In this document: positions 13,257-14,080 of the stretch, piece by piece
Layout: every line of letters begins with the position of its first letter
Position numbering within the stretch: position 1 is the first letter of the stretch
Origin: Alloascoidea africana
Lineage: Eukaryota > Ascomycota > Alloascoideomycetes > Alloascoideales > Alloascoideaceae
Assembly: GCA_030581615.1 (NCBI GenBank)
Contig: JAKTTT010000012.1
Span: 124,001 to 188,000 of the forward strand
Length of the DNA: 64,000 bases
Direction of reading: 5' to 3'
Notes under the pieces: model-generated
The model's database searches: none
Seen by the model: only the letters and a program-made list of their open reading frames with translations
Told to the model about the DNA's origin: nothing
Made by a program: the position numbers and the translations under genes

Positions 13257-14080
13257 CTAGGCCTCGTCTTCAACAAGCGCTGTTACCATGTTGAACAAGT
13301 ACCAGAAGAACAGCAAGAGATAGAACCCAAGCTTTGAAAAGCTCTCTACTCTGTGCTTTCCCAGTCTCCTGAATATTTCGGTTGGGTCCAGCTGGTGATC
13401 ATTCTTGTGATAGCTGTAGCCATTGTATAGCAGCACCGGGAGATTGAGGATAAATGATCCCCAATAACCTTTAAATAGGCACGCCAAGGTCAAAACAGAG
13501 TGTAATAGTGTCTCCGGGATAATCAACTAAATGCGATAGGAGGAAAAAAAAATCCCCGGCCATTAGTGCCAATATTCTTGGTTCTTGGACAAAAACAGAG
13601 TCCAGAACTCACTTTGTTGATCCGGTTGCACAGGTCGATAGGATTTATGTAATCTTCGACGCATTCAATATTTAGGTCAATTATTGGTTAGCCTCTCAAC
13701 TTGTTTTGAACAATTGATCCGGTATCCGATTCGACGCTTGCTCGCCAGGGGTTTAGTACCTACCGCTTTCTTCCAAACAACGATAAAGGTTAGTACACTA
13801 TCAAGAAGCTGCAGTCTGGCCGTTGCCTTTTCGCTTTTGCAGTTACAGGGCGAAACAAAACCCAAGAATGAACGATTTTCTGCAACAGGAACCGATAAAA
13901 AGGACCCTACAGACGATTGACCAGGGCCGTTGAATCAAACAAACGTAAGATGAGATCTATGCACATACCCAGATCAGTGTACATCACACAGAAGAAAACC
14001 TGAAGAAACAGATTGCCGAAATTGCCCATAAGGACAAATATGAAAAACCTTTCAAATGACGAGTCATCTGCGTTAGCCAT
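13257..14080 (-). CDS. ERV14: COPII cargo receptor Erv14 (cornichon family)
   Basis: Proposed minus-strand exons: 14080-13969, 13769-13764 (six bases), 13653-13613, 13526-13257, giving 142 residues (S. cerevisiae 138). The spliced protein reads LFLQVFFCVMYTDL-ES-DYINPIDLCNRINK-LIIPETLLHS and continues to EIFRRLGKHRVESFSKLGFYLLLFFWYLF, aligning with cornichons without gaps. Without the six-base exon it lacks two residues in the invariant DLE-x-DYINP motif. Introns: 13770-13968 (GTATGT, TACTAAC, GGAAG), 13654-13763 (GTAGGT, GCTAAC, CGAAG), 13527-13612 (GTGAGT, TTTAG). Three hydrophobic segments fit the family. Family knowledge: Erv14 loads transmembrane cargo into COPII vesicles. An upstream in-frame ATG at 14101 would add seven residues. 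The outer exons are firm; the microexon is inferred. Confidence 0.85.
13764..13769 (-). other. putative 6-nt microexon of ERV14
   Basis: On the minus strand the order is TACTAAC, a pyrimidine-rich gap, GGAAG, then AAAGCG, then GTAGGT. The six bases are phase-compatible with both neighbours (G+AA, AGC, G+AT) and encode the Glu and Ser of DLESDYINP, residues otherwise missing from a nearly invariant cornichon motif. This is inference from splice signals and family conservation. Confidence 0.7.

What the first reader, a model, noticed from the sequence alone, without database searches (positions are those of the whole stretch)
13764..13769. A 6-nt microexon in ERV14
Seen: on the minus strand, TACTAAC, a pyrimidine-rich gap and an AG precede AAAGCG, which is followed at once by GTAGGT. 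Splicing exon 1 (ending at 13969) to these six bases and then to 13653 gives DLESDYINP. Established: cornichon proteins almost always read DLE-x-DY-x-NP (S. cerevisiae DLEADYINP). Skipping the six bases gives DLDYINP, in frame but two residues short, so the machinery could make either form. Microexons this small are rare in budding yeasts and would be invisible to usual gene callers.
Basis: partly seen in the sequence, partly recalled or inferred. Interest (0 to 1): 0.82.

Follow-up and report, generated by a model that had tools for sequence, protein, structure and literature searches.

The report
Six-base exon in yeast ERV14
A yeast gene for a cargo receptor carries an exon only six bases long that supplies two conserved amino acids, and the same genome carries further exons of 6 to 14 bases in housekeeping genes, which ordinary gene finders would probably miss.

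Summary
On the minus strand ERV14 is exon 1 (14080-13969), microexon AAAGCG (13769-13764), exon 3 (13653-13613), exon 4 (13526-13257). The joined frame reads DLESDYINP; no other one- or two-intron join enumerated gives DLE-x-DY. The strongest evidence stands in for the sister-species test. A sister paralog on contig C1 has a 6-nt exon in the same phases with other letters (AATGTG, giving DLECDYINP), between introns that no longer align; a third copy on C54 carries GAAAGCG uninterrupted. The exon is not alone: two GDI1 copies and COX9 also have 6-nt exons, and TUB1, PHO85, VMA3, an RRM gene and two carrier genes have 8-14-nt exons. Against: no RNA evidence; both acceptors are AAG and the second donor is GTAGGT; the bare signal pattern is no commoner than its reversed control. 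I favour constitutive inclusion by intron definition; regulated skipping is possible but unsupported. Fungal microexons down to 1 nt are in print; my eight paper searches turned up none described in a budding yeast.

The parts
13969..14080 (-). ERV14 exon 1 (ATG...GATCTGG), ends in phase 1 of the conserved E codon
13770..13968 (-). intron 1, 199 nt, GTATGT...AAG
13789..13795 (-). branch-point consensus TACTAAC, the only CTRAY-type site in intron 1; the AAG at 13772-13770 holds the first AG after it
13764..13769 (-). 6-nt microexon AAAGCG (G|AA AGC G|AT = E-S-D)
13654..13763 (-). intron 2, 110 nt, GTAGGT...AAG
13687..13693 (-). GGCTAAC, the only CTRAY-type branch candidate of intron 2
13613..13653 (-). 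exon 3 (ATTACATAAATCCT...AACAAA)
13527..13612 (-). intron 3, 86 nt, GTGAGT...TAG
13257..13526 (-). exon 4 with the stop codon

Best explanation
The six bases are a real coding microexon of ERV14, spliced in by ordinary U2-type splicing. The spliceosome recognises each short intron on its own (intron definition). Six bases are too few for both neighbouring splice sites to be occupied at once, so the two introns are probably removed one after the other; once one is gone the six bases are part of a normal-sized exon. Inclusion is most likely constitutive, because the two residues keep the conserved spacing of the DLExDYxNP motif. Shown here: the sequence elements, the reading frame, conservation in a paralog and the recurrence of such exons in the genome. 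Inferred: splicing itself, its order and its constancy.
For: Exact elements. Only AAAGCG restores E-x-D among the enumerated joins. The C1 paralog reads GATCTGG|GTAAGT...AACTAAC...TATAG|AATGTG|GTATGT...AATAG|ACTATATC, giving DLECDYINP. Between the two copies blastn finds only two 7-nt words in intron 1 and nothing in intron 2, so the position has outlived the intron sequence. The C54 paralog reads GATCTTGAAAGCG|GTATGC, contiguous. C12 and C1 are sisters at 98/96 support. Inclusion raises Pfam scores over skipping: Cornichon 155.3 against 141.6 (C12) and 173.2 against 158.1 (C1); GDI 483.1 against 470.0. For COX9 inclusion aligns to PDB Cox9 without a gap at 57.3 bits, skipping with a gap at 49 bits. 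In an HMM of 120 homologs, 11 of 400 residue pairs (ES among them) score at least as well as ES, and 36 of 4096 hexamers do and still give the D.
Against: No transcript data. Both acceptors in this copy are AAG, whereas 10 of the 13 introns tabulated end in TAG; GTAGGT is the only such donor among the 13, though a carrier gene on C16 also uses GTAGGT and, at another of its introns, an AAG acceptor. The window copy sits on a long branch (1.29 against 0.046 for C1), so relaxed constraint is possible. The bare motif is not enriched genome-wide. Any two residues in the gap raise the profile score (median of 400 pairs 182.5 against 175.0 for skipping, ES 187.0), so only part of the gain is specific to ES.
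Confidence: 0.92

Rival explanations
1. The microexon is real but alternatively spliced: inclusion and in-frame skipping make two ERV14 proteins that differ by two residues in a conserved motif.
For: Both forms are in frame. All five homology-supported 6-nt exons found have phase-1 introns on both sides, so each can be skipped without a frameshift. The splice sites of this copy are weaker than those around the C1 microexon.
Against: Skipping breaks a spacing that 162 of 193 listed homologs keep by strict motif and lowers profile scores. The C54 copy has E-S in one exon with D's first base. Other small exons here are 8, 13 and 14 nt and would shift the frame if skipped, so small size does not imply regulation.
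Confidence: 0.12
2. The 315 nt are one intervening sequence (one large intron or a stwintron-like complex intron) and AAAGCG is never coding; the protein is DLDYINP.
For: The direct join 13969 to 13653 is open. Complex introns removed in consecutive steps are documented in Lipomyces (PMC7138796, passages).
Against: The C54 copy codes GAAAGCG contiguously and the C1 copy codes E-C from its own 6-nt exon. Profile scores favour inclusion. The hexamer would have to give E-x-D by accident.
Confidence: 0.04
3. The window copy is a decaying duplicate whose splice sites are degenerating and whose splicing is irrelevant.
For: Long terminal branch in the tree; AAG acceptors and GTAGGT; two further ERV14 copies in the genome.
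Against: Four coding exons still join into a full-length frame with a strong Cornichon match. The microexon keeps the E, and intron 1 keeps a perfect TACTAAC.
Confidence: 0.06

Closest known systems
Fungal microexons in P450 genes (Phanerochaete chrysosporium, PMC1184071; Fusarium CYP621A 1-nt exon, PMC12940212)
   Same: Tiny coding exons, in the Fusarium case inside a conserved motif whose length they preserve; the shortest P450 exon in Phanerochaete is 6 bp (passages).
   Different: Basidiomycete and filamentous-ascomycete P450 genes. Here it is a housekeeping gene in a genome that looks like a budding yeast, with the exon present in two duplicates. The Fusarium exon has transcript support; this one has none.
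Trichoderma virens Xlr2 switch-like microexon (PMC11121469)
   Same: A fungal microexon.
   Different: There inclusion depends on glucose and changes function (abstract and passages). No regulation is shown here.
Schizosaccharomyces pombe microexon splicing by intron definition (Romfo et al. 2000, seen only as a reference in PMC11121469)
   Same: The probable mechanism: splice sites paired across short introns.
   Different: Not read; the paper is not held.
Stwintrons of Lipomyces (PMC7138796)
   Same: Consecutive splicing of adjacent intron units in an ascomycete yeast (passages).
   Different: In stwintrons the intervening sequence is all intronic; here the middle six bases code conserved residues.

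Membership tests
Cornichon / ERV14 | Cornichon domain over the profile cut-off along the protein | tested here: met
   155.3 bits against a cut-off of 29.2, profile positions 3-122 of 122; PDB ERV14 E=3e-42
Cornichon / ERV14 | DLExDYxNP motif with two residues between L and D | tested here: met
   DLESDYINP only with the microexon; strict motif in 162 of 193 listed homologs
Coding microexon (internal exon of 30 nt or less) | Bounded by U2-type signals (donor, branch, AG) | tested here: met
   GTATGT, TACTAAC, AAG, GTAGGT, GGCTAAC, AAG; acceptors and second donor are not the usual ones here
Coding microexon (internal exon of 30 nt or less) | Restores conserved coding content | tested here: met
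Coding microexon (internal exon of 30 nt or less) | Conserved in an independent relative or paralog | tested here: met
   C1 paralog AATGTG at the same codon positions; the C54 paralog lacks the first intron; no sister-species DNA was available
Coding microexon (internal exon of 30 nt or less) | Present in mature mRNA | not testable with these tools
   no transcript data
Regulated (switch-like) microexon | Inclusion changes with condition | not testable with these tools
   no transcript data
Stwintron | Internal intron interrupts a splicing element of the external intron and the whole is non-coding | tested here: not met
   the two introns are adjacent, each with its own donor and acceptor, and the middle bases are coding by homology; splicing intermediates could not be tested

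The most novel reading that the evidence does not exclude
A budding-yeast lineage keeps a standing, genome-wide set of very small exons (6-14 nt) in secretory, cytoskeletal and respiratory genes, conserved through gene duplications. The 6-nt ones, all with phase-1 introns on both sides, act as in-frame two-residue switches whose skipping is regulated.
Probability: 0.1. Interest if true: 0.85.

Novelty: new member of a known kind. Interest (0 to 1): 0.6.

Why it matters
It suggests that the spliceosome of what is probably a budding yeast handles 6-nt exons in core genes, in a group whose genomes are described as intron-poor (abstracts of PMC4202332 and PMC2911113, listing). Paralog pairs with the same microexon but unrelated introns make a natural experiment on what defines such an exon. 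Annotation of intron-rich yeasts may drop or distort these residues: 20 of 193 listed cornichon proteins carry an insertion at this same motif, probably from read-through of an intron at a nearby but different position.

Tried and rejected
Single-intron and alternative two-intron solutions: enumerated, none gives DLExDY. The first enumeration started one base off frame, at 14081, and is superseded.

The signal pattern alone as evidence: rejected, since in no pattern search did matches exceed the reversed control.

L009 (C38): likewise GTATGT reads as coding (KRPVCST) in what looks like a Zn-cluster gene. L037 lies against the coding strand of another gene by eye. No exon recognised at L043, L046, L047, L050.

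Selection: for the 18, 8 and 36 sites no loci were cut; I then fetched nine places chosen by eye and already held some others. The rest were not examined. L030, L031, L033-L035 and L038 were cut but not read. So the 11 loci reported are no census.

PHO85: Pfam hardly separates inclusion (76.9) from skipping (76.0); the support is the ungapped alignment to PDB PHO85. Skipping forms were not scored for VMA3, the RRM gene or the carriers.

Rhodosporidium DAO1 '6-nt exon' (PMC4624585): the passage means six bases of exon 2, not a 6-nt exon.

Sister-species comparison: not possible. The best 120 hits listed by each ERV14 search hold none above 60% identity to the window protein; the AFG2 search gave no named close relative.

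Twenty 10-kb stretches of C1 and one of C54 were fetched for synteny and intron statistics that I did not carry out.

Full report
WHAT IS THERE. The minus strand carries an ERV14 (cornichon) gene in four coding pieces: 14080-13969, 13769-13764 (AAAGCG), 13653-13613, 13526-13257. The joined product is 142 aa, matches Cornichon over profile positions 3-122 of 122 (155.3 bits) and ERV14 in the PDB (E=3e-42, ungapped across DLESDYINP). Without the six bases the frame stays open, but the alignment needs a two-residue gap and the scores fall (137.7 against 147.3 bits to PDB ERV14; 141.6 against 155.3 to Pfam).

IS IT CHANCE. I enumerated GT or GC donors (from base 61 of exon 1 onward) with every AG acceptor, introns of at least 30 nt. 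Six single-intron joins reach an open YINP; none gives DLExDY. Of 21,317 two-intron combinations with a middle exon of up to 80 nt, 207 stay open from MYTDL to YINP, seven have three residues in the gap, and only AAAGCG gives E first and D last. In 50,000 dinucleotide shuffles of 13962-13661, 1,413 contain any AG-N6-GTRNGT, 46 one that codes E-x-D, and two such a one with CTAAC 5-40 nt upstream. This test was framed after the fact. The bare pattern TACTAAC-N(5-35)-AG-N6-GTANGT occurs 3 times in the 23.18-Mb genome against 12 for its reversed control, and the looser CTAAC form 23 against 93. The motif by itself therefore proves nothing; the coding content and the paralogs do.

PARALOGS. A Cornichon search of the genome gave five matches, four over the cut-off; three are clear ERV14 copies. 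The C1 copy is split as GATCTGG|GTAAGT ... AACTAAC ... TTTTTATAG|AATGTG|GTATGT ... GGAATAG|ACTATATCAACCC. Its microexon is also six bases, in the same phases, and gives DLECDYINP; EC is the pair in 121 of the 162 listed homologs that match the strict motif. Between the copies blastn finds two 7-nt words in intron 1 and nothing in intron 2. The C54 copy reads GATCTTGAAAGCG|GTATGC ... CACAG|ATTTC: no first intron, the second intron in the same place, and the letters GAAAGCG in one piece. In a tree of 25 proteins C12 and C1 are sisters (98/96), C12 has a long terminal branch (1.29 against 0.046), and the place of C54 is open. On that tree the microexon is older than the C12-C1 duplication. Either the first intron was gained before that duplication or C54 lost it.

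OTHER FUNGI. Searches found 194 and 1,304 hits and listed the best 120 of each, 193 different proteins. Of these, 162 match the strict motif with exactly two residues between L and D, E first in 160. Of the 31 others, 20 carry an insertion at this spot, 3 lack MYSDLEC, 6 show EC but fail my strict pattern and 2 were not viewed. Of the 20 insertions, 16 begin DLEWY, as expected if a gene model read through an intron that starts after GAGTG. That implies an intron between bases 5 and 6 counted from the E codon in these fungi (those with names are filamentous ascomycetes), whereas the introns here lie after bases 1 and 7. This is inferred from protein models, not from DNA.

NOT ALONE. Pattern hits in the window's own genome, checked by homology, gave further very small exons: GDI1 on C26 (GCACTG) and its paralog on C6 (GTACCG), both restoring VIVLGTGLTEC; COX9 on C14 (CTCTGA), where inclusion aligns without a gap to PDB Cox9 at 57.3 bits and skipping gives 49 bits with a gap; alpha-tubulin on C21 (9 nt; MREVISINVGQAGCQIG restored); PHO85 on C10 (9 nt; ungapped to PDB PHO85, though Pfam barely distinguishes it from skipping); an RRM protein on C13 (8 nt; likeness to GBP2/HRB1 recalled); V-ATPase subunit c on C29 (13 nt; ungapped to PDB); a mitochondrial carrier on C16 (14 nt; the name DIC1 is recalled) and a paralog on C9 (14 nt, read by eye). 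With the two ERV14 copies that makes 11 loci in 8 gene families. The searches asked for a CTAAC branch and a few donors, and only a hand-picked part of the hits was examined, so this is no census and says nothing about a preferred length. All five 6-nt cases have phase-1 introns on both sides; the 8-, 13- and 14-nt cases are not multiples of three.

SPLICE SITES. Of the 13 introns tabulated, ten end in TAG; the three AAG ends are this gene's introns 1 and 2 and intron 3 of the C1 copy. GTAGGT occurs once among the 13 (this gene), and again in the C16 carrier. Introns 1 and 2 of this gene hold exactly one CTRAY-type site each, and the acceptor is the first AG after it. Two of the 13 introns (C1 intron 2, COX9 intron 2) show no CTRAY site.

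MECHANISM. Most likely two ordinary U2 introns, each recognised across itself, removed in sequence; six bases cannot carry both adjacent complexes at once (established view of splice-site footprints, recalled). The conserved spacing of the motif argues for constitutive inclusion. The sequence features are shown; the splicing, its order and its constancy are inferred.

ORGANISM. Not named by the tools. The named hits among the 120 listed AFG2 homologs are budding yeasts. Genome size (23.18 Mb) and duplicated genes fit the order Alloascoideales, whose three genomes average 24.15 Mb with the largest gene-family size of 12 yeast orders (PMC12322030, passages; taxonomy). This is a guess; it was not tested.

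LITERATURE. Eight searches. Fungal microexons are in print: a 6-bp shortest exon in Phanerochaete P450 genes (PMC1184071, passages), a 1-nt exon in Fusarium (PMC12940212, passages), a regulated one in Trichoderma (PMC11121469, passages). In two Yarrowia papers I looked only at passages for chosen terms (PMC13309789, no microexon passage; PMC2911113, exon skipping in a few genes, exon sizes not seen). The cornichon/ERV14/intron/exon search returned one unrelated paper. None of the listings showed a microexon described in a budding yeast; papers not held could.

Noticed in passing
L042 (C26:150002-150041) and L045 (C6:488304-488337): Both GDI1 copies carry a 6-nt exon (GCACTG, GTACCG) inside the conserved VIVLGTGLTEC motif.
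   Followed up: yes
L008 (C14:54015-54049): COX9 carries a 6-nt exon CTCTGA; inclusion aligns to solved Cox9 structures without a gap.
   Followed up: yes
L048 (C21), L051 (C10), L049 (C13), L053 (C29), L032 (C16), L052 (C9): Exons of 9, 9, 8, 13, 14 and 14 nt in alpha-tubulin, PHO85, an RRM gene, V-ATPase subunit c and two mitochondrial-carrier genes.
   Followed up: partly
L036 (C31:213957-214018): By eye, a 29-nt exon (TCTTAAGAGTGACATTGCTTCAAAAGGAG) in a small gene that resembles the yeast proteinase-inhibitor PBI2 (recalled); not tested.
   Followed up: no
G000:C23:105174-105219: CCCTGTCTATGCT between CTAAC...AG and GTATGT looks like the 13-nt exon of a second V-ATPase subunit c gene; it could not be fetched.
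   Followed up: no
L005 (C1:511793-512146) and L006 (C40:180222-180452): Two further cornichon-like loci, one over and one just under the Pfam cut-off, diverged and apparently without the DLExDY motif.
   Followed up: no
protein hits: 20 of 193 listed cornichon proteins carry an insertion at the DLExDY motif, probably read-through of an intron at a nearby but different position.
   Followed up: partly
window 13257-14080: The window's ERV14 copy has a far longer terminal branch than its sister copy on C1 (1.29 and 0.046).
   Followed up: partly
window 16059-16836 (-): A ribosomal protein eL18 (RPL18) gene that seems interrupted by an intron; named from recall of the yeast sequence.
   Followed up: no
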